Of a stretch of 20,267 nucleotides of DNA, positions 589 through 19,276 are shown piece by piece. The position numbers were made by a program, and so were the translations under genes. The notes beneath the pieces are model-generated. The model saw only the letters and a list, made by a program, of their open reading frames with translations, was not told where the DNA came from and did no database searches. Source of the stretch: Candidatus Bathyarchaeota archaeon (GTDB lineage Archaea > Thermoproteota > Bathyarchaeia > TCS64); assembly GCA_016867505.1 (NCBI GenBank), contig VGJH01000002.1:1-20267 (forward strand). The letters run 5' to 3'. How positions within the stretch are numbered: the first letter of the stretch is position 1; the number at the start of each line of letters is the position of its first letter.

Positions 589-852
589 ATGGCAGTTATT
601 GTTGAGTCTGATGATAGTGGAAGAATAGTGATCCCTAAAAAGATCAGAGAAGAGTTAGGCATCACAGGCAAAACACAATTCATCTTAACAAAAAATAACA
701 GAGGTCAGATACTGATTCAGAAGCTTGAGGTGGAGGAGATTGCGAAGAGGTTAAGAGAAGAACTGAAAGACACTCCTGTCGAGGATTTAGCGAAAGGCAT
801 CAGGGAAGAGATTAATGAAAGAGTCAAGAAAACCTATCCGTCTATTACTTGA
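589..852 (+). CDS. vapB: AbrB/SpoVT-type antitoxin (VapB-like)
   Basis: The 87-residue protein begins with a swapped-hairpin AbrB domain (about residues 3-46) carrying the family signature DSGRIVIPKKIREELGI. A charged helical tail rich in Glu, Lys and Arg follows and probably wraps the toxin. Such antitoxins bind the operon promoter as dimers and neutralise a PIN ribonuclease. The ATG at 589 gives a correctly sized N-terminus. Its end overlaps the start of the PIN gene by 38 bp in another frame, typical of translational coupling in toxin-antitoxin pairs. Upstream 547-560 is T-rich and could hold the TATA box. The family assignment is firm; the VapB role rests on the neighbour. Confidence 0.88.
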   Translation: MAVIVESDDSGRIVIPKKIREELGITGKTQFILTKNNRGQILIQKLEVEEIAKRLREELKDTPVEDLAKGIREEINERVKKTYPSIT

Positions 853-1261
853 TAATAACGTCTTTGTAGCTGCAGTTAAGAATCCAACTGCAAAAAGTAT
901 CAGTCTTCAACTCATTCTAAAAATAATTAAGGATTCAGACATTCAACTTGTGGGCAACATGTTTCTTCTAGAGGAGATGGCTAAGTATGCTGAGGTCTTC
1001 AAATCTCCTACTGTGGCTCTGATTCTTGAGGCGTTGGTTTCGAAAATGGATGTGATAGAGATAAAGGAGAGTTTCATTAAGCTTGTCAAAGGCTACTTCA
1101 CGATGAGTGAATTAGTGGATGCTGTTCACGCTGCAACTTGTCTGCAGGCTGAGGCTATCTTGGTTACTAATGATAAGCATTTTAGTAAAATGAAAGAATC
1201 AGAAATTATTATTGTGTGGAGTATCTCGGAAGCTCTTAAGGAGTTAGGTATTAGGAGCTAA
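815..1261 (+). CDS. vapC: PIN-domain ribonuclease toxin (VapC-like)
   Basis: This 148-residue PIN-fold protein has the expected acidic metal-binding set: D13 in LLLDNNVFVAAV, E53/E54 in the LLEEMAKY helix, D102 in ELVDAVHAA and D120 in ILVTNDKHF. VapC toxins use Mg2+ or Mn2+ to cut RNA, often tRNA or rRNA, and are held inactive by the cognate AbrB-type partner. It overlaps the antitoxin frame by 38 bp. The ATG at 815 is the only reasonable start because D13 follows closely. The catalytic residues all appear present, so the toxin is predicted active. Its target is not inferable. Confidence 0.86.
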   Translation: MKESRKPIRLLLDNNVFVAAVKNPTAKSISLQLILKIIKDSDIQLVGNMFLLEEMAKYAEVFKSPTVALILEALVSKMDVIEIKESFIKLVKGYFTMSELVDAVHAATCLQAEAILVTNDKHFSKMKESEIIIVWSISEALKELGIRS

Positions 1262-2412: not shown

Positions 2413-5400
2413 TTGTATTTAAAATCGGTTCTGAAATGGATATTATTTTTTTGTTTATTGTTTAGTAATTTAAATATTTTAAAAATTGATCAAGTTAGTG
2501 GGGAAAATAAAATTGTTGATTCCCCTTTATTATGGTCACTTTATTCAGATAATCCTAATGATGTATGTATCTCCTCAGATGGAAAAATAATTGTTGTATG
2601 TACAGGGCAAGGCTTTAAAATTTTTAAAGATATACTAAAAACACCATCTTGGGATTATAATTTTAATAGTCAATTAGTATCAACTTCTCTCTCACTAGAT
2701 GGAAATTTTATGGTATGTGGAGTTGATCCAGGTATTCTTTATTTATTTAATATAAATACTCCAAAACCACTTTGGAGTTGTAAGTTAGATAGTAGAATTG
2801 CTGAAGTATCTATTGATAGGAATGGTGAAAATATTGTAGTTACTACACAGAAAAAGATTGATGGATTAACTGCAAAAATTTACTTGTTTTCAAGAAATAG
2901 TAACGCTCCAATCTGGTTTTTTGAGCTAGATGCAGCAGGCTCGATGTATCGTCCAGTCGCTATCTCCGCAGATGGAAAATATATTATTGCTGGGGGGGAC
3001 TCTATCCCATGTTTACACCTTTTTACACCATCAACTAATATTCCTTTATGGATTTATGAACCAAATTATACTCCTTGGTTATCAGCAGTTGCAATTTCAG
3101 AAGATGGCAGTTATATTGTTGCTGCAAATAACCAAGCAGGTGCTATACAATGCTTCTCGAAGGATAACAATAAACCTCTTTGGACTTATTTCAGTGGTCA
3201 AGACATTTATCAAATTGCTATGTCAGTAGACGGTGAATACATTGTTGCAGGTGGAATAAAATCTACTTTATACTTATTCTCAAAAAAAGATGGTTTAATA
3301 TGGAGTTACAAAGTAGGTGGCTCCATTAACTCAGTATCAATTTCAGGCGATGGAAAATATATCGTCGTTGGTAGTCAAGATAACCATATTTATCTATTAT
3401 CAAGAGAGGATAAAACACCTATCTGGAGTTATAGAACAAATGGTGGGGTGTTTTCAACAGCAATATCCTCCAACGGAGATTACATTATTGTGGAAAGTCG
3501 AGATAAGTACGTGTATTTTTTTAAAACTTTAATAAATGGTGAGCGAAAATCAACCACTTTTAAGATCAACTCACCAAAACTCGAATTAAATAATAGTGAA
3601 CCTATTCTGTTACACTTCAAATTGACATCCCAGAACAAGCCAATATCAGATAAATTAATTACTTGGGATTCAGAGGATGGAGAATTTGAGTACGAATGTG
3701 GTTTTACTGATTCAAATGGTGAAGTCTCTATTATGTACACAACACCAATTATCGATAATCAGTCTAAAATTTCAATCACTGCAAATTTTGCTGGAGACGA
3801 ATTTTATTATCCCACTAATAATAATTTATCATTAATAATAAATTCTTTAACAACATGGAAACTACATCCTACAATAAAAATTAAAGGTGATTTAGAATTT
3901 ACCTTAGACAAAGGTGTTATTGGAGGAAGTGGCGTTAAAGAAGATCCATTTATTATTGAAGGATGGGAGATTAATAGTGAGAAAAATTGTGGGATATTTA
4001 TAGAAAATACAAATAAATATGTAATTATTAGAAATATGCATATTTTTGGGGAGTATTCCTCTTCCCCCACAAATTGTATACAACTTGGGAATGTACAAAA
4101 TATTGTTATTGAAAATTCGGTTTTTGAGAAAAGTAGTAATTTTGGAATTTATATTGATACAGCTTCTAATATTAATGTAAATCATAATGTTATAAGGAAT
4201 AATGCAAGACAAGGCATTTCAGTATTGAAAGCAAGTTATATTACAATTAGTGATAATATTATTAACAATAACGGTGATTTAGGATTTGAATCCTTTTTTA
4301 CTTCAAATGGATTGATAATAAATAATGTTGTTAATAGTAATAGTAAACATGGTATTGGTATTTATTATACTAATTATACAAAAATTAGTAACAACACTGC
4401 ATTTTGTAATGGTTGGACTGGAGTAAGCATATCCTATGATTCAAATAATAACCTTTTAACAGATACTAATATCCAAAAAAATGGGTTATGTCCATGGAGT
4501 GTTGGTGGTATACAATTAAAAGAAAATTCTAATAACAATGTTATTAAAAATAATGATATAGAAAATAATTTAACATTTGGTATAAATGTTATCAATAAAT
4601 CAGTAAATACAACAATAGAAAATAATAAAATATCAAATAATAATGCGTTAGCAATTAATTTAATATTGATAAATAATGCAATTATCAAAAACAATGTTAT
4701 AAGTAATAATGAGCAAATTGGAATAGCTTTATGGGATTCATATGAAAATAAAATAATAAATAATACAATAAAAGAAAATAAGCAGGGCGGATTATTTTTT
4801 AGTCAATCATTTGACAACATTATTTATAAAAATAATTTCATTAATAATCAGCCACAACTATGTAATTCTGAAATTAGTAATAATGAATTAAAATTAGGTG
4901 GAGAGGGAAATTATTGGAATGATTATAAAGGCAATGATCTAAACTTTGATGGTATCGGTGATACTTCTTACCAAAATTTAGATCCATATCCCTTCATAAA
5001 TGAGAATGGCTGGCTAACCCAGTTCAATTTAACCGTGAAAACCAATTTCCCATTAATACCATTCAAAATTGAAAACCTAGCATATAACACAGAGAATAAT
5101 GGCATAAAAACGATAAATTTGGGATACATTAAAAGCTATAAAATTAGCTTCCCCGAAGAGATCAAAGCCACAGATAATACTAGATTGAAATTCAGGAAAT
5201 GGGAAGACTCATCAATAAACTCTACAAGGATAATCAACATATCATCACACACTACCATCCAAGCTTCTTATGTTGAACAAGCCCACGTGAATGTTGTATC
5301 ACAATATGGTGAAGTTTCTGGTGGAGGTTGGTATGACGTAGGATCTGAAACAACAATCACCCTAAAACAGACAATAATCTCCAATAATATGACTAAAGCT

Positions 5401-5796
5401 GTTTTCAGTGGATGGGCAGGCAACTACTCTAGCTCAAACCCCACAATCACTTTTATCGTTTCTGATCCAGTCAACCTTGAAGCTAGTTTCATGAAACAAT
5501 ACTATTTGAAGGTGGAATCAGAGTTTAGTCAGACATTGGGTTCAGGGTGGTATAATGAAGGAACTAAGGCATCTTATTCAATTCAGGAGACAAAGCTCTC
5601 CTCAAATCTCTTCATATCAAAAGTCTTCAAAGGATGGTCTGGAGATTCTGCATCTGTGTCTCAAACTAATGTAATTGTAGTCGATAAGCCAATAACAATT
5701 AAAGCAATTTGGGTTGATGATTTCACAGCCATATATATAATTGGAGGAGCCTTTCTAGCCATAATTTTGGTATTATTCTTAATTAAACGAAAATAA
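2413..5796 (+). CDS. Large secreted, C-terminally anchored multidomain surface protein
   Basis: The 1127-residue protein starts at TTG 2413, preceded by GGTGATT. A signal peptide (about residues 1-31, hydrophobic ILFFCLLFSNLNIL) leads to eight repeats of the form VAIS-DGKYIVAGG-LYLFS-PLWSY (about 36-373), predicting an eight-bladed propeller. An Ig-like segment follows (about 385-475). An Asn-rich parallel beta-helix of NosD/PbH1 type covers about 505-860 and closes with GEGNYWNDYKGNDLNFDGIG and DPYPF. Three tandem beta-rich units with FxGW or FRKW motifs (about 870-1100) come next, then a transmembrane anchor (IIGGAFLAIILVLFLI) and basic tail (KRK). It is probably displayed outside the membrane for binding polymers, surfaces or cells. 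The beta-helix DNA is extremely AT-rich compared with the ends. Flanking B repeats suggest it may have been inserted or exchanged as a unit. No catalytic residues are recognised. Confidence 0.88.
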   Translation: MYLKSVLKWILFFCLLFSNLNILKIDQVSGENKIVDSPLLWSLYSDNPNDVCISSDGKIIVVCTGQGFKIFKDILKTPSWDYNFNSQLVSTSLSLDGNFMVCGVDPGILYLFNINTPKPLWSCKLDSRIAEVSIDRNGENIVVTTQKKIDGLTAKIYLFSRNSNAPIWFFELDAAGSMYRPVAISADGKYIIAGGDSIPCLHLFTPSTNIPLWIYEPNYTPWLSAVAISEDGSYIVAANNQAGAIQCFSKDNNKPLWTYFSGQDIYQIAMSVDGEYIVAGGIKSTLYLFSKKDGLIWSYKVGGSINSVSISGDGKYIVVGSQDNHIYLLSREDKTPIWSYRTNGGVFSTAISSNGDYIIVESRDKYVYFFKTLINGERKSTTFKINSPKLELNNSEPILLHFKLTSQNKPISDKLITWDSEDGEFEYECGFTDSNGEVSIMYTTPIIDNQSKISITANFAGDEFYYPTNNNLSLIINSLTTWKLHPTIKIKGDLEFTLDKGVIGGSGVKEDPFIIEGWEINSEKNCGIFIENTNKYVIIRNMHIFGEYSSSPTNCIQLGNVQNIVIENSVFEKSSNFGIYIDTASNINVNHNVIRNNARQGISVLKASYITISDNIINNNGDLGFESFFTSNGLIINNVVNSNSKHGIGIYYTNYTKISNNTAFCNGWTGVSISYDSNNNLLTDTNIQKNGLCPWSVGGIQLKENSNNNVIKNNDIENNLTFGINVINKSVNTTIENNKISNNNALAINLILINNAIIKNNVISNNEQIGIALWDSYENKIINNTIKENKQGGLFFSQSFDNIIYKNNFINNQPQLCNSEISNNELKLGGEGNYWNDYKGNDLNFDGIGDTSYQNLDPYPFINENGWLTQFNLTVKTNFPLIPFKIENLAYNTENNGIKTINLGYIKSYKISFPEEIKATDNTRLKFRKWEDSSINSTRIINISSHTTIQASYVEQAHVNVVSQYGEVSGGGWYDVGSETTITLKQTIISNNMTKAVFSGWAGNYSSSNPTITFIVSDPVNLEASFMKQYYLKVESEFSQTLGSGWYNEGTKASYSIQETKLSSNLFISKVFKGWSGDSASVSQTNVIVVDKPITIKAIWVDDFTAIYIIGGAFLAIILVLFLIKRK

Positions 5797-10649: not shown

Positions 10650-10725
10650 TGGTAGCCCGGGAGAGATTCGAACTCTCGTCAGAGGCTCCAGAGGCCCCGA
10701 TCCTTGACCACTAGACGACCGGGCT
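10650..10725 (-). tRNA. tRNA-Gln (anticodon CTG) with encoded CCA
   Basis: The minus strand folds as a complete cloverleaf. The acceptor AGCCCGG pairs with CCGGGCT. The D-arm contains TAGTGGTCAAG. The anticodon stem GGGGC/GCCTC encloses loop CTCTGGA, giving anticodon CTG. A TGAC variable loop follows, then T-arm GAGAG-TTCGAAT-CTCTC. The discriminator is A and CCA is encoded at 10650-10652. No intron is seen. Confidence 0.95.
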
Positions 10726-13230: not shown

Positions 13231-14013
13231 TTGCTAAGGGGCTTTCTGAATACTATCGGAGTATACAAAATATATCACAAGTGGCTTCTAAACCAAATCA
13301 AAACAGGAGAAATGCCCAACCATATCGGAGTAATCCTCGATGGCAATCGAAGATGGGCAGTTCAACGAGAGAAAGTACCCTGGGAAGGACACTACGCTGG
13401 CGGAGAAAATGTAAAAGAATTTCTCAAATGGTGCTTAAACCTAAAAATTAAAACCGTCACTCTTTACGCGTTATCAACTGAGAACTTCAATCGTTCACCA
13501 CGCGAACTTGAAGAATTAATGAGCATGTATGAAAAAGCACTGGAAGAAGTGATTGCTTCAGACATTCTAAACAAATACCAGGTTCGAGCCCATGTTATTG
13601 GAAGAACCTCTTTACTTCCCAAAACTCTTCAAGAGTTAATCAAAGACGTTGAGAAAAAAACTGAGAATCATGATCAATTCTATCTGAATGTCGCTCTTGC
13701 TTATGGGGGAAGAAGTGAAATAGTTGACGCGACAAAAGAAATCGCTGCTCTAATTAAATCAGGTAAAGTAGAGCCTGAGGAGATTAATGAGAAGTTAATT
13801 GAAAAACACCTTTACACATCACATCTTCCTCAACCTGACCCCGATTTAATTATCAGGACTGGTTCGGAGTCAAGGTTAAGTAATTTCTTATTATGGCAAG
13901 CAGCATATAGTGAATTATTCATTGTAGATGTATATTGGCCAGATTTTAGGGAAATCGACCTTGAGAGAGTAATACGTGATTATCAAAAAAGACATCGTAG
14001 ATATGGAAAATAA
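13231..14013 (+). CDS. uppS: cis-Prenyltransferase (UPP synthase family, polyprenyl diphosphate synthase)
   Basis: The 260-residue enzyme adds isopentenyl units in cis to an allylic diphosphate. In archaea this makes the dolichyl-type lipid carrier for glycosylation. Motif 1 HIGVILDGNRRWA has catalytic D37 and diphosphate-binding R40/R41. TLYALSTENFNR is motif 3. The C-terminal RTGSESRLSNFLLWQAAYSE and DVYWPDF carry the isopentenyl-diphosphate-binding Arg and Ser residues. TTG 13231, preceded by AAGG, gives a normal length. The product chain length cannot be read from sequence. A pyrimidine-rich tract after the stop (14016-14031) may terminate the transcript. Confidence 0.93.
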   Translation: MLRGFLNTIGVYKIYHKWLLNQIKTGEMPNHIGVILDGNRRWAVQREKVPWEGHYAGGENVKEFLKWCLNLKIKTVTLYALSTENFNRSPRELEELMSMYEKALEEVIASDILNKYQVRAHVIGRTSLLPKTLQELIKDVEKKTENHDQFYLNVALAYGGRSEIVDATKEIAALIKSGKVEPEEINEKLIEKHLYTSHLPQPDPDLIIRTGSESRLSNFLLWQAAYSELFIVDVYWPDFREIDLERVIRDYQKRHRRYGK

Positions 14014-14221: not shown

Positions 14222-14330
14222 TAACTACAACAGAGACGAACTGGATAACCCATAATCCCACTATAATACGTAATAATACTGCCTACAATCATCGTATCTC
14301 GAACGTAGATTTTGAATTATTTAAAGGAGA

Positions 14331-14417
14331 ATGGTAACTAACCGCGTCCGTCTACCCGAAGTTGCCTCATTAAAGCAAAAACCGGGAAGGAGATTAACCA
14401 AATGGAGGGAACACTAA
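14331..14417 (+). CDS. 28-residue basic mini-ORF immediately upstream of smc
   Basis: ATG 14331 opens a frame of 28 codons (MVTNRVRLPEVASL, then KQKPGRRLTKWREH) ending in TAA at 14415-14417, one base before the proposed AUA start of smc. The product is strongly basic. AAAGGAG precedes the ATG but only 1 nt away, so initiation may be weak or leaderless. It could be a leader peptide coupling translation to smc, a small DNA-binding protein or chance. Nothing in it identifies a known family. Confidence 0.4.
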   Translation: MVTNRVRLPEVASLKQKPGRRLTKWREH

Positions 14418-14418
14418 C

Positions 14419-17400
14419 ATAGTCTACATAAGCAAAATTCTCATCCGTAATTTCAAATCATTTGGAGGACAAATAAAGCTCAACTTTCAATCAGGATTTA
14501 ATATAATTACCGGTCCGAATGGAAGTGGTAAAAGCAACATCATCGATGCTATCCAATTTGTTTTAGGTGAATTGGCTTCTAAACGTATGAGGGTTCCTGA
14601 CTTTGGTGGTCTCATTTATGATGGCGCTGGGGAACAAGATGTTGGTAAATCTCAGATAGCGCAGGTGACAATTTATTTCGATAACTCTGATAGGGGCTTA
14701 TCTTCTGATCGAAGTCAAGTCAGCGTTGGTAGAAAAGTTGATAGAGACGGAAAAAGTGATTATTATCTTAACGGAAAAAGGACTTCACGTAAAATAGTTT
14801 TAGATTTACTACAATTAGCAGGCATAACTCCAGGAGGTTACAATATTGTGCTCCAGGGTACTGCAACACGTCTAAGTGATTTAACGCCATCAGAACGCAT
14901 GAGTGCTCTTGAAGATTTAATTGGAATAAAAGAGTATGATGAGAAAAAGTCTGAAGCAAAAATACGTTTAACCGAAGCTGAAAGAAAAATTGAAGTAGCT
15001 TCAGCGAGAATAGATGAAGTTAGAAAAAGAGTCGCTGAACTTGAGCGACAAAGAAATGATGCTTTAAGATATAATCATCTTAACCGAGAAGAAAAACGTC
15101 TTACCGCACTAAAATTAAGTTACCAAATAAATCAGCTTGAAGAAAAATTAAGTGGATTAATGCAACAATTTAGAGAACATGAAGTAGAAGTAACAAAACT
15201 AGAGGAAGAAAAGAAGCAACTTAGAGAAGAACGTGATATTGCAAGGAATAGAGTTGAAGAATTTAACAGAGAAGCTTCAGAGAGAGGAAACACTAGATTA
15301 CCTCTACTAAAATCAGATCTTGTTGGTAAGAAAACACTTAGAGATAATGTTTCAACTAGATTAAAGGAAATTACTTCTCGTCGAAATTATTTAGAAAAAG
15401 CAATAATTGATAAACAGAATGAGTTAACCCAATCTGAAGACGAGGTAGCAGAACGTAGAGGACAACTTAACAACCTGAATGAAAGATACAAAGAATTGAC
15501 TTATTCATTACAGATTAAAAAGGATGAATTTAATCATATTATTGGAGTCTTACAAGTTTCACGAAACACTGCTTCACAGAATCAGAAACGACTGGAGGAT
15601 CAGACTGAAAATTTAGTTCCAATCCAAGAAACACTGAGCGGTCTTGAAATTGAAATCAATGCATACAAGAATGCCATTAATAACCTTGAAGAAAAAATTC
15701 ATGAACAAGAAAATAAAAAAGACGATTATGAAAAAACAATTGATAATTTAAAAGAAAAATTAAACGAGTATGCTAGTCTGAAGAATCAAGAAGCTGTAAA
15801 CCTTGAAGCCATGCTCACAAATTTGGAGAACCAGATCGAGAGGCAAAAAAACTTACGCAGCACAATTGAGAACGCTAATATTTTAGCTAAACAAGCAGAG
15901 ACTTCGATCACGGAATTTTCTGCTAAACGCGATTTATGGAGACAATTAGTAGTCGAAGAAAAAGCGCTTGAACGAATAAGAGAGATTGGGGAAGCAGGTG
16001 CGCTTGATGGTTATCATGGCCCAGTTAAATCTCTGATTAAAGTGGATATTCAAAATCAGAGGGCCATTTACTCTTCAGCTTTAGGCTGGATGAATGCCAT
16101 CGTTGTTGATGATCTTGGTGTAGCAATCAACTGCATTGAGAGGCTTAAAAAAACTAAGTTAGGGATGACCAAGTTTATTCCCCTTGATCAATTAAAGAAG
16201 GCAGAGCCTTTACCAAAGTTAACAATTGATGGCGTTATAGGGCCTCTTATTGATGTAATTAACTGTGATGATGTCTATCTCCCTATTGCTGAAATGATTT
16301 GGGGAGATACTTACCTGGTAAAAGACTCAGACACTGCAACAAAGGTGGTTTCAACTGGTTATAGAGCAGTGACAACCTCAGGAGATGTTTATGAGCCAAA
16401 TGGAGGAATAATTGGTGGCTATTATAGAAGACCTCCAGATTACTCAAAACTTGTACCGACAGAAGAGTCTATTGACACACTATCAAAGACCATCAAAACA
16501 TTAAGACAGAAACTTAAAACAAGAATGACTGATTTAAAGGCAAGCGGAGGAAACCTCCGTGGATTCTCAACATATATGGATGAATCTAAGAAACGAATGA
16601 CTAGAATTGACACAGAAGTTCTTGAAACCAACGAAAGAATTGAACGGCTTGAAAAAACTTTAGCAACTACAATTGAAGGCATTGATAAATTTAGAAAAGG
16701 TAAAGAACGTCAAGAGCAATTATCTGTAACCCTATTAGAGCGTAAACAAAGGGTTATTCAACAAATTGATGAAATTAAGCAATCAATTTCACAGCTTAAG
16801 GAATTTAAGCCATCTGATTTAACAGAGCTTGAGATAAAACGTTCTAGTCTTGACTCTGAGATAAGTAATTTACAGAATTTAATAAGAGACGTTGAGAATG
16901 CTCAATCAGTTCAGAGTGGTTTTGTTGAAAGAGTTCTTTCCATCAGAATCACTGAAGCATCTGAACAGAGTAAAAAAATGACTGAAGAAAGCTTAACCTT
17001 AGAACATGAATACACCCAGAACCAAGAACAACTAATTGACATTAATAGAGAGATCGAAATCATCGAACTCGATTTAAGCAGTCTAACAGGTGAAGTTGAA
17101 GCAACAACAAATGTCATAGAACAACAGCAGAAAACCCTCCGAATGATAAACCAGAGAATGGAGGACCTTGAGCGTCGAAGAGAATCCGCAGATAAACGGC
17201 TGAACCAAATTACATTAGATATTGAGAAACTCAAATTCCAGAGTGAGCAGAAACTTGACGAATTAGCCACAAATGGGTACGAAGACAAACTTAACATAAC
17301 TGGTCTAGAAATTGAATTACTTGAATCAAGAATCCAACAAGTACGTTCTGAACGTGGTAATATTGGCGCAATCAACCAGCTAGCCTTAGAACAATATAAT

Positions 17401-17973
17401 GATTACATGACGAATTACAAGAGTCAGAGTACAAGAATAAATGAACTTGAAGAAGAGAAAGCAGGAATACTGAAATTCATTGAGCAGGTTGAAAGAGAGA
17501 AAACCGACCACTTCATGACTGCTTTCAACGAAGTCTGTGAAAACTTCAGCACAATATTTGGTAAAATCACTGGTGGTGGGGATGGTAGACTCGAACTTCA
17601 GAAACCTGAAGAACCCTTCTCAGGAGGAGTTGATCTATACCTCCAATTCCCAGGGAAACCCATGCGGTTAGGCAGTGGGGCATCCGGAGGAGAACGATCC
17701 GTTGCTGCCATCGCTTACTTGTTAGCAATACAAAAATTCCTTAGAGCACCCTTCTACGTCTTCGACGAAGTTGATGCACATCTCGATGATCTTAATACCA
17801 GCAGATTAAGTGAAGTACTGAAAGAAAGTGCAGTTGATTCACAGTTTTTGATGATCAGCCTAAAAGATGTGATGGTCCACAACGCTGACCGAATATATGG
17901 TGTATTCTCTCAAGGCGGAAAAAGCAGAGTGTTAGCGCTTCCCATGAAAAATAAGGTGGAGACTGTTATATGA
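14419..17973 (+). CDS. smc: Chromosome segregation ATPase SMC, probable AUA start
   Basis: Starting at ATA 14419 the protein has 1184 residues, a normal SMC length. It begins MVYISKILIRNFKSFGG, with Walker A GPNGSGKSN at residues 32-40. A long coiled coil follows, then the hinge (about 525-675, GYHGPVKSLI to GGIIGGYYRR) and the returning coil. The C-terminal head carries signature SGGERS (about 1086) and Walker B FYVFDEVDAHLDD (about 1112). With ScpA and ScpB it forms the ring that organises and segregates chromosomes. No ATG, GTG or TTG occurs in frame between the stop at 14395-14397 and TTG 14572, and starting at 14572 would delete Walker A. A perfect GGAGG (14404-14408) lies 10 nt before the ATA. 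Its last codons overlap scpA by ATGA. Confidence 0.93.
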   Translation: MVYISKILIRNFKSFGGQIKLNFQSGFNIITGPNGSGKSNIIDAIQFVLGELASKRMRVPDFGGLIYDGAGEQDVGKSQIAQVTIYFDNSDRGLSSDRSQVSVGRKVDRDGKSDYYLNGKRTSRKIVLDLLQLAGITPGGYNIVLQGTATRLSDLTPSERMSALEDLIGIKEYDEKKSEAKIRLTEAERKIEVASARIDEVRKRVAELERQRNDALRYNHLNREEKRLTALKLSYQINQLEEKLSGLMQQFREHEVEVTKLEEEKKQLREERDIARNRVEEFNREASERGNTRLPLLKSDLVGKKTLRDNVSTRLKEITSRRNYLEKAIIDKQNELTQSEDEVAERRGQLNNLNERYKELTYSLQIKKDEFNHIIGVLQVSRNTASQNQKRLEDQTENLVPIQETLSGLEIEINAYKNAINNLEEKIHEQENKKDDYEKTIDNLKEKLNEYASLKNQEAVNLEAMLTNLENQIERQKNLRSTIENANILAKQAETSITEFSAKRDLWRQLVVEEKALERIREIGEAGALDGYHGPVKSLIKVDIQNQRAIYSSALGWMNAIVVDDLGVAINCIERLKKTKLGMTKFIPLDQLKKAEPLPKLTIDGVIGPLIDVINCDDVYLPIAEMIWGDTYLVKDSDTATKVVSTGYRAVTTSGDVYEPNGGIIGGYYRRPPDYSKLVPTEESIDTLSKTIKTLRQKLKTRMTDLKASGGNLRGFSTYMDESKKRMTRIDTEVLETNERIERLEKTLATTIEGIDKFRKGKERQEQLSVTLLERKQRVIQQIDEIKQSISQLKEFKPSDLTELEIKRSSLDSEISNLQNLIRDVENAQSVQSGFVERVLSIRITEASEQSKKMTEESLTLEHEYTQNQEQLIDINREIEIIELDLSSLTGEVEATTNVIEQQQKTLRMINQRMEDLERRRESADKRLNQITLDIEKLKFQSEQKLDELATNGYEDKLNITGLEIELLESRIQQVRSERGNIGAINQLALEQYNDYMTNYKSQSTRINELEEEKAGILKFIEQVEREKTDHFMTAFNEVCENFSTIFGKITGGGDGRLELQKPEEPFSGGVDLYLQFPGKPMRLGSGASGGERSVAAIAYLLAIQKFLRAPFYVFDEVDAHLDDLNTSRLSEVLKESAVDSQFLMISLKDVMVHNADRIYGVFSQGGKSRVLALPMKNKVETVI

Positions 17974-18641
17974 CTGATAAATTTGAGAAACCCTACTACC
18001 TCCGCCAGCCATGGGACATTCTATTCCGTGAAAATAAACTTGAAAAAATTAGTCCTTGGAGTATTAATTTAGTAGAATTGTTATCAAGCCTGCTTAAGGA
18101 GATGGAACGAGTTGGCATTGATTTTAGGATAGCAGGCACAGCAGTTAACAGCTCAGTTTTAATCTACCTGAAAAAAGCAGAGCTATTACTCGCGATGGAA
18201 GAAGCTCCCCAACCTCAGATAGATGATGCTGGAGAAGTCTATTTACCACCAGCTGTTCCACTTCCCTTCAGGTTTGAGTTTACTACAACAAGCATACAAG
18301 ATCTGATTAATGCTTTAGAAAAAACATTAAATGAAGAGGCAAATAAAAGCGACATTCCCAGGTTACCTACTTTACCTTTACCAATCCCTAATTTTCTAGA
18401 CATAGAGCAATATCTTGTAGAAATCGAGTCAAGAGCAGAAGAGCTACTTGAAAAAATTAAAAACCAGATTGTTTCTGGTAATGAATTAAGATTTATTATT
18501 ATGATCGAAGGCTTACCTCGCTTTGAATCTGTCAGACTGTTCATGATGCTTCTCTTCCTTGCACAGAGAATGGATATTGATCTGATTCAAGATGAGGAAG
18601 AAACGGATATTCAAATCGTTTTAAGGGTGAAAAAAGAATGA
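17970..18641 (+). CDS. scpA: Segregation and condensation protein A (kleisin)
   Basis: This 223-residue kleisin bridges the SMC heads and binds ScpB. The N-terminal region (WDILFRENKLEKISPWSINLV) is the characteristic start that contacts the SMC neck. A helical segment (LLSSLLKEM, LIYLKKAELLL), an acidic/proline linker (about 75-140) and a C-terminal winged-helix (LPRFESVRLFMMLLFLAQR, about 165-222) that binds the SMC cap follow. The ATG overlaps the smc stop (ATGA), and the stop overlaps scpB the same way, so the three are translationally coupled and probably made in fixed ratio. Confidence 0.88.
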   Translation: MTDKFEKPYYLRQPWDILFRENKLEKISPWSINLVELLSSLLKEMERVGIDFRIAGTAVNSSVLIYLKKAELLLAMEEAPQPQIDDAGEVYLPPAVPLPFRFEFTTTSIQDLINALEKTLNEEANKSDIPRLPTLPLPIPNFLDIEQYLVEIESRAEELLEKIKNQIVSGNELRFIIMIEGLPRFESVRLFMMLLFLAQRMDIDLIQDEEETDIQIVLRVKKE

Positions 18642-19276
18642 TTTCAGATTCGTTAAAAAATAAGACAAAGCTAACTGCATTAGAAGCAGCGTTGTACGCT
18701 GCAGGTCATCCACTAGGTATTGAAGAATTAATGCATGTTGTTAGCAGTAAATCAGAAAAAGTAGTAATAGGTTTAATAAATGAGTTAATTCACAAATTCG
18801 AATCCCGTAACGGTGCTCTCGAAATTAAAATCCTTCCTGGAAATAGAGTGGTAATGCAGCTGAAATCTACATATAATTCACTTGTCAGAGAGTTCACACA
18901 CAAACCTCTATTGAAAACAAGTTCTCTAAAGACATTAGGTTATATTGCATATTATCAGCCAATCGAGCAGGGACAAGTTATTGAAAGCCGTGGAGGACAC
19001 ATTTACTCCCAGTTACGTCATATGGAAGAACTTGGATTAATCATTCGGGAAAGAGTAGACGAAAAAAGATTCGTTATAAAAACCACCCCCTTCTTTGGCG
19101 ATTACTTTGGCATTGGCGCTAATCCAGAGAACTCAAAAATGCAATTCAAACAAATTTTTGAACACGTGAAAGTGCCTGAAATCAAAGTACAGGAACCAGT
19201 CATTAGTGTACCCTTAACAGACTCTAGGGATGGGCTCGCCGATGGGCTTCCTCAATATCCTCGTCCCGCCAACTAA
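18638..19276 (+). CDS. scpB: Segregation and condensation protein B
   Basis: The 212-residue protein has the two winged-helix domains of ScpB. The first covers about residues 10-80 (LTALEAALYAAGHPLGIEEL), the second about 88-160 (KTLGYIAYYQPIEQGQVIES and HMEELGLIIRERVDEKRFVI, ending TPFFGDYFGI). It dimerises on the ScpA linker. The C-terminal ~45 residues after FGIGANPEN look unstructured. The last 63 bp (TDSRDGL to PRPAN) are antisense to the end of hypE, so this tail is probably dictated in part by the hypE reading frame. The start is ATG 18638, overlapping the scpA stop. Confidence 0.88.
   Translation: MISDSLKNKTKLTALEAALYAAGHPLGIEELMHVVSSKSEKVVIGLINELIHKFESRNGALEIKILPGNRVVMQLKSTYNSLVREFTHKPLLKTSSLKTLGYIAYYQPIEQGQVIESRGGHIYSQLRHMEELGLIIRERVDEKRFVIKTTPFFGDYFGIGANPENSKMQFKQIFEHVKVPEIKVQEPVISVPLTDSRDGLADGLPQYPRPAN

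What the first reader, a model, noticed from the sequence alone, without database searches (positions are those of the whole stretch)
14395..14574. smc appears to start at an AUA codon; every canonical start would delete Walker A
In the smc frame a TAA lies at 14395-14397 and the first ATG/GTG/TTG after it is TTG 14572, beyond the codons for the Walker A motif (14512-14538). The intervening 51 codons encode a perfect SMC N-terminus (VYISKILIRNFKSFG and GPNGSGKSN). ATA at 14419 occupies exactly the Met position expected before VYISK, with GGAGG at 14404-14408. A non-AUG, non-NUG start on an essential-type ATPase would be unusual and would cause automated annotation to truncate the gene.
Basis: partly seen in the sequence, partly recalled or inferred. 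Interest (0 to 1): 0.75.

Follow-up and report, generated by a model that had tools for sequence, protein, structure and literature searches.

The report
Archaeal genes starting at AUA/ACG
A chromosome-segregation gene in an uncultured archaeon seems to begin at AUA, which is not a usual start codon, and relatives begin this gene and several others at ACG, so gene finders cut off the front of these proteins.

Summary
The SMC frame opens after TAA 14395-14397; ATA 14419-14421 sits at the Met column, 10 nt after GGAGG; the first ATG/GTG/TTG (NUG) is TTG 14572, past Walker A.

A sequencing error is very unlikely. The five genus genomes found with a full smc all lack NUG at this column: ATA in two, ACG in three. 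In 18 of 18 parsed loci from other genera of the family it is NUG. Codons 2-51 are under strong purifying selection. ATA and ACG rows lie in different clades, with canonical-start clades between.

It is not confined to smc. In stretches not chosen for the genes at issue, 17 of 597 testable ORFs lacked NUG; 5 of the 17 have ACG where an ortholog has NUG, none has another ACN. The five: INO1, BshA, a NUDIX protein, YbaK-like, ribosomal L30e. INO1 also starts with ACG in the window's own genome, directly after an in-frame stop.

Best reading: near-cognate initiation at AUA/ACG by the ordinary initiator tRNA, positioned by Shine-Dalgarno pairing. RNA editing is not excluded. No RNA or protein data were available.

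The parts
14320..14325 (+). TATA-like TTTAAA of the presumed smc promoter
   Evidence: Sequence; the stretch around it is conserved in the five genus genomes. Promoter role is inferred.
14331..14417 (+). 28-codon ORF ending one base before the ATA; considered as leader peptide or frameshift donor and rejected
   Evidence: Length differs between genomes (28, 15, 9, 9, 9 codons) and the peptide is not conserved.
14395..14397 (+). In-frame stop TAA that closes the smc frame upstream
   Evidence: all five genus genomes have an in-frame stop within 15 codons upstream of the start column.
14404..14408 (+). Shine-Dalgarno-like GGAGG
   Evidence: a GAGGG core is kept at this place in the five genus genomes.
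14419..14421 (+). ATA, proposed start codon of smc
   Evidence: Aligns with ATA in G001, ACG in G002-G004 and NUG in 18 of 18 parsed loci of other genera of the family.
14419..17973 (+). smc coding sequence (1184 codons plus stop)
   Evidence: PF02463, PF06470, PF13476; TIGR02169 688 bits, under its cut-off of 729.4, and TIGR02168 543.4 under 567.35.
14512..14538 (+). Walker A codons (GPNGSGKSN)
14572..14574 (+). First canonical start codon in frame (TTG); would delete Walker A

Best explanation
smc is translated from the AUA at 14419. The GGAGG upstream pairs with 16S rRNA and sets the initiation complex on the codon, where the ordinary initiator tRNA (anticodon CAU) accepts one mismatch and inserts Met. 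This archaeal family tolerates such starts more widely: ACG, one transition from AUG, is a minor start codon in about 1% of sampled genes, and AUA is a counterpart seen in the two AT-rich genus members. Shown: position, conservation, selection on the N-terminus, recurrence in other genes, an initiator-type tRNA gene with CAU in an ACG genome. Inferred: that ribosomes start there, that Met is inserted, and that initiation is weaker than at AUG.
For: smc column ATA, ATA, ACG, ACG, ACG in the five genus genomes with a full smc, NUG in 18 of 18 parsed loci of other family genera; four of the five are separately named assemblies. Purifying selection on codons 2-51. G000 and G001 both keep ATA although their SMC proteins are only 79% identical. 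At least 4 changes of the start label on a 44-row tree, ATA and ACG rows in different clades (for rows without DNA the label is the source's gene call). Other genes: 5 ACG among 17 flagged of 597 testable ORFs, no other ACN, P 3.7e-5 against the ACG codon frequency of 1.15%. INO1 ACG in G000, G003, G005; BshA ACG in G002, G003. L30e ACG in G020 and G017 against ATG in 23 readable loci. A strong SD (GGAGG, GGGGG or GAGGG type) precedes nearly all of these ACG codons; the NUDIX one is weak. Initiator-type tRNA with CAT in G003.
Against: No RNA, ribosome or peptide data. The AUA case rests on one gene in two genomes. G001 has a TTG at SMC residue 8 and G004 an ATG at residue 7, without an SD but usable in principle. 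G001 gave 0 of 133 and G004 0 of 47 further ACG cases. L30e overlaps the gene before it, so coupling may help there. The exact initiator anticodon-arm pattern was seen in 7 of 12 genomes searched and not in G000, G004, G005, G012 or G020 (several are incomplete). aIF1 looks ordinary by eye, so no cause of relaxed recognition was found.
Confidence: 0.72

Rival explanations
1. The transcript is edited so that the start reads AUG (C-to-U for ACG, another reaction for AUA), as plastids do for some ACG starts.
For: Plastid rpl2, psbL and ndhD transcripts gain AUG from ACG by C-to-U editing (PMC9845219, passages). The cases here are ACG in all genes but smc of two genomes.
Against: AUA would need a different reaction. 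No shared motif around the ACG codons beyond the SD was apparent by eye. No editing enzyme was searched for.
Confidence: 0.08
2. SMC starts at an internal NUG. In G000 this would be TTG 14572, giving a protein without Walker A; in G001 and G004 a NUG at residue 8 or 7.
For: Gene callers place starts there (P0001, P0004-P0006, P0011, P0014).
Against: Codons 2-51 are under purifying selection; G000, G002 and G003 have no NUG before Walker A; the SD fits the ATA/ACG, not the internal codons (by eye).
Confidence: 0.04
3. Translation begins at an upstream AUG and reaches the smc frame by frameshift, or an intron brings in an AUG.
For: ATG 14331 opens an ORF ending one base before the ATA; ATG 14402 lies close by.
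Against: Neither is conserved as a peptide, ORF lengths differ, and ATG 14402 is absent in three genus members. Leader folds are ordinary: z -0.91, 0.09, -0.30, 0.95. In G000 INO1 the ACG directly follows an in-frame TAA. Introns were not searched for systematically.
Confidence: 0.04
4. Termination-reinitiation: a ribosome ending the preceding gene restarts at the nearby ACG without needing a good start codon.
For: In G020 and G017 the L30e ACG lies inside the end of the preceding gene, whose stop begins 5 nt after the A of ACG. Coupling is strong for overlapping pairs in Haloferax and E. coli (PMC10666635, passages).
Against: smc has 405 nt without an annotated ORF before it (preceding ORF ends at 14013), and coupling is nearly lost at about 20 nt in that paper. 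Upstream gene ends were not mapped for every other ACG gene.
Confidence: 0.07
5. Sequencing or assembly error, or dead genes.
Against: Four separately named assemblies carry the non-NUG codon in full-length smc ORFs; other genes repeat it; dN/dS-type counts show function.
Confidence: 0.02

Closest known systems
GUG and UUG starts (table 11 practice)
   Same: One-mismatch codons read by initiator tRNA with SD help; single substitutions from AUG.
   Different: Those mismatch at the first base; ACG mismatches at the second and AUA at the third. Gene callers accept GUG/UUG and not ACG/AUA.
Rare CUG and AUU start switches in prokaryotes (PMC5622118, passages)
   Same: Non-NUG or rare starts reached from AUG in closely related genomes.
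   Different: That survey lists, from 61,358 ancestral AUG starts, 363 GUG, 113 UUG, 2 CUG and 1 AUU; the passages seen name no ACG or AUA. It used annotated genes, so it could hardly see them.
GUC start of a leaderless Halobacterium mRNA (cited in PMC4574771, passage)
   Same: Non-canonical start in an archaeon.
   Different: Single leaderless case; here SD-led, several genes, several genera.
AUU starts of E. coli infC and pcnB (recalled)
   Same: Chromosomal non-NUG start kept in evolution.
   Different: infC is autoregulated through the start codon (recalled); no such loop is known for SMC, INO1 or BshA.
Plastid ACG start codons (PMC9845219, passages)
   Same: Genomic ACG at start codons of several genes, a ribosomal protein among them.
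   Different: There the RNA is edited to AUG; here editing is untested and AUA would need another reaction.

Membership tests
SMC chromosome segregation ATPase | N-terminal Walker A head, hinge, C-terminal head | tested here: met
   PF02463 in two stretches, PF06470 hinge, PF13476/PF13555 when read from ATA. NCBIfam TIGR02169 and TIGR02168 match over nearly full length but under their cut-offs.
Non-canonical translation start (AUA/ACG) | No NUG at or upstream of the conserved N-terminus in frame | tested here: met
   G000, G002, G003 smc; INO1 G000, G003; BshA G002, G003; NUDIX G003; YbaK-like and L30e G020. Exceptions with other NUG in frame: G017 L30e (upstream TTG, GTG), INO1 G005 (GTG 4 codons on), smc G001 and G004 (internal NUG).
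Non-canonical translation start (AUA/ACG) | Ribosome initiates at that codon | not testable with these tools
   Needs ribosome profiling, N-terminal peptides or reporters.
Non-canonical translation start (AUA/ACG) | Conserved protein sequence begins at that codon | tested here: met
   Purifying selection right after it for smc; in-frame stops within 15 codons upstream in the five genus genomes.
Start created by RNA editing (plastid type) | AUG in the transcript where DNA has ACG | not testable with these tools
   No transcript reads.
Altered initiator tRNA | Initiator tRNA anticodon other than CAU | tested here: inconclusive
   G003 initiator-type tRNA has CAT; the exact arm pattern was found in 7 of 12 genomes, not in G000 or G020. 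No CGT initiator found: the G003 CGT match is not a tRNA by ARAGORN.

The most novel reading that the evidence does not exclude
One family of Bathyarchaeia has relaxed start-codon recognition: ACG (and AUA in AT-rich members) is a regular minor start codon, used in about 1% of genes including smc and a ribosomal protein, with an unchanged initiator anticodon. Start codons then drift by single transitions from AUG (GUG, ACG, AUA), and gene callers miss the new ones.
Probability: 0.45. Interest if true: 0.8.

Novelty: new variant of a known kind. Interest (0 to 1): 0.62.

Why it matters
If true, chromosomal start codons in an uncultured archaeal group are wider than gene callers assume, and their proteins are cut at the N-terminus, here removing an ATP-binding site. 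Matched ATG/ACG orthologs also offer a natural setting to ask how archaeal initiation factors set start-codon fidelity.

Tried and rejected
Rejected: ORF 14331-14417 as conserved leader peptide or frameshift donor. RNA structure: four leaders folded, z -0.91, 0.09, -0.30, 0.95. Rfam on 11 sources gave only the tRNA at 10653-10725. An initiator tRNA with another anticodon: not found in the G003 stretches. An odd aIF1: the G003 protein reads like those of G031, G030 and G006 by eye (the G028 frame was misplaced and not read; G000 and G020 gave no SUI1 match). Phage tblastn with the SMC N-terminus: 12 records, all under 60% identity.

Weak or contrary results: a first pass flagged 74 of 331 ORFs, many of them antisense frames; replace it. 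Codons at Met-aligned columns: ACG 10 of 419 (8 with SD) against ACA 3, ACC 2, ACT 1, but 4 of the 10 lie in loci fetched because of ACG and 3 look misaligned. Stricter rules: ACG 5 of 226 against ACA 1; 2 of those 5 lie in such loci and one has no SD. Of the 12 flagged ORFs without ACG, 4 contain masked bases; the others were only looked over as printed and not resolved one by one. The P value treats 33 aligned codons as independent draws and is rough. 4 of the 30 smc loci (L032-L035) were not parsed. Only 8 INO1 loci were printed, others. In one search, 5 of 30 L30e loci gave no aligned start codon (G006, G023, G026, G027, G060). L30e pattern over 256 class genomes: 18 matched, 17 ATG, 1 ACG.

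Papers: eight searches showed no account of ACG or AUA starts in archaeal chromosomes in the listings; this covers only the held open-access library and listed rows. Hecht 2017 was not held.

Full report
WHAT IS THERE. The window is contig 2 of an incomplete genome (G000, 1.6 Mb in 350 contigs, 82% complete). The nearest named relatives are Candidatus Bathyarchaeota. In the smc frame TAA lies at 14395-14397, then PNGGNTN, then ATA 14419-14421, then VYISKILIRNFKSFG; the first NUG is TTG 14572, after Walker A. GGAGG at 14404-14408 precedes ATA by 10 nt. The product read from ATA has the P-loop domains; the product read from TTG 14572 lacks them.

COMPARISON OF SMC STARTS. One search covered 61 genomes; 60 had a match and 30 loci were cut. 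Of six genus genomes (own included), five hold full smc; G005 gave only a 29% identical relative. At the Met column they read ATA (G000), ATA (G001, 79% identical), ACG (G002, 70%), ACG (G003, 69%) and ACG (G004, 67%). In the 18 parsed loci from other genera of the family the column reads ATG 9, GTG 5, TTG 4. Further out L029 and L037 have ATG and L038 (G033, another family) has CTG; L032-L035 were not parsed. The five genus leaders keep a GAGGG core. G001 has a TTG at SMC residue 8 and G004 an ATG at residue 7, both without an SD; G000, G002 and G003 have no NUG before Walker A.

THE N-TERMINUS LOOKS TRANSLATED. Over codons 2-51, the ten pairs of the five genomes give pN 0.00-0.10 against pS 0.38-1.17 (Nei-Gojobori counts). 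All five have an in-frame stop within 15 codons upstream. A tree of 44 SMC proteins puts the ATA rows in one clade and the ACG rows in another, with clades of canonical-start proteins between; at least 4 changes of the label 'no canonical start' are needed. For rows without DNA this label is the source's gene call and is weaker evidence. Others of the same clade (P0002, P0007-P0010, P0015) have a canonical start. P0003 reads through the promoter region from a TTG and carries Thr at the Met column.

OTHER GENES. Stretches of G001, G003, G004 and the sister-genus genome G020 were compared frame by frame. All data: 23 of 694 testable ORFs had no NUG where a homolog has one. The clean count drops loci and contigs chosen for smc, INO1 or BshA: 597 testable, 17 flagged, and 5 of the 17 have ACG at a NUG-aligned column. 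No other ACN occurs there; other near-cognates are AGG 2, ATA 1, ATC 1, ATT 1. ACG is 1.15% of codons, giving P 3.7e-5 for 5 of 33 columns (rough). By genome: G003 3 of 167, G020 2 of 250, G001 0 of 133, G004 0 of 47. The five are INO1, BshA and a NUDIX protein in G003, and L30e and a YbaK-like protein in G020. Of the other 12 flagged ORFs, 4 hold masked bases and the rest showed no convincing start in what was printed.

Wider sampling of three of these. INO1 in 32 genomes (30 with a match, none in G002): ACG in G000, G003 and G005, ATG in G001 and G004. In G000 the ACG directly follows an in-frame TAA, so nothing upstream can serve. BshA in 32 genomes: ACG in G002 and G003, ATG in G004, TTG in G000, NUG in seven other family loci. 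L30e in 60 genomes (30 loci): ACG in G020 and G017, ATG in 23, not readable at the start in 5. There the start overlaps the end of the preceding gene, so ATG to ACG is a synonymous Asp change (GAT to GAC) in that gene. The G020 L30e frame is masked and scores under cut-off; the G017 one is whole and passes the NCBIfam L30e cut-off (106.5 against 77 bits), though it has a TTG and a GTG further upstream in frame. Families: INO1 TIGR03450 under cut-off but PF01658 over it, BshA TIGR03999 over cut-off, YbaK-like PF04073 and NUDIX PF00293 over cut-off.

PATTERN. Sampled GC is 0.36 in the window and 0.33 in G001 (both ATA at smc), 0.57 in G003, 0.52 in G004, 0.56 in G020 and 0.62 at the G002 smc locus (ACG). 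The G000 INO1 ACG is an exception. ACG and AUA, like GUG, are single transitions from AUG, which fits drift under tolerant recognition (inference).

MECHANISM. Best reading: SD-led initiation with the ordinary initiator tRNA at a one-mismatch codon. G003 carries an initiator-type tRNA gene (CAT); the exact arm pattern was seen in 7 of 12 genomes and not in G000, G004, G005, G012 or G020. aIF1 is described as destabilising non-AUG complexes in archaea (PMC6237735, passages) and looks ordinary in G003. Leaders show no special fold. Editing, coupling, internal and upstream starts are weighed as rivals. Whether a weak start serves to keep SMC low is untested.

KNOWN AND NEW. A survey of start switches names GUG, UUG, CUG and AUU as fates of AUG (PMC5622118, passages), from annotated genes. 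A GUC start in Halobacterium is cited in PMC4574771 (passage). AUU is put at about 0.3% of AUG in E. coli, citing Hecht 2017 (PMC10666635, passage; Hecht itself not held). Eight searches of the open library listed no account of ACG or AUA starts in archaeal chromosomes (listings, and passages of a few papers). I therefore call it a new variant of a known kind, non-canonical initiation, unusual in codon, recurrence and age. All of it rests on DNA comparison.

Noticed in passing
L038 (G033, another family of the class), smc start: The Met column of smc is CTG, with no NUG at or upstream of it in frame; a further non-NUG smc start outside the genus.
   Followed up: no
L230 (G020) and L235 (G017), position 1501: L30e ATG to ACG coincides with a synonymous GAT to GAC Asp change in the overlapping preceding gene, a simple route by which start codons can be lost.
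   Followed up: partly
window 17970-19276: Two ORFs directly follow smc with 4-nt overlaps (17970-18641 and 18638-19276); by position and recall they look like scpA and scpB. No family search was run on them.
   Followed up: no
window 589-1261: Two overlapping ORFs that look by eye like an AbrB-type antitoxin and a PIN-domain toxin (recalled; not searched).
   Followed up: no
window 2413-5796: 1127-aa TTG-started ORF that looks like a secreted repeat protein (beta-propeller then parallel beta-helix by eye) with a C-terminal hydrophobic segment; not searched.
   Followed up: no
L126 (G003 contig 1) 10957-11073: tRNA-Tyr with a predicted 42-nt intron.
   Followed up: no
window 10650-10725: tRNA-Gln (CTG), minus strand.
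   Followed up: no
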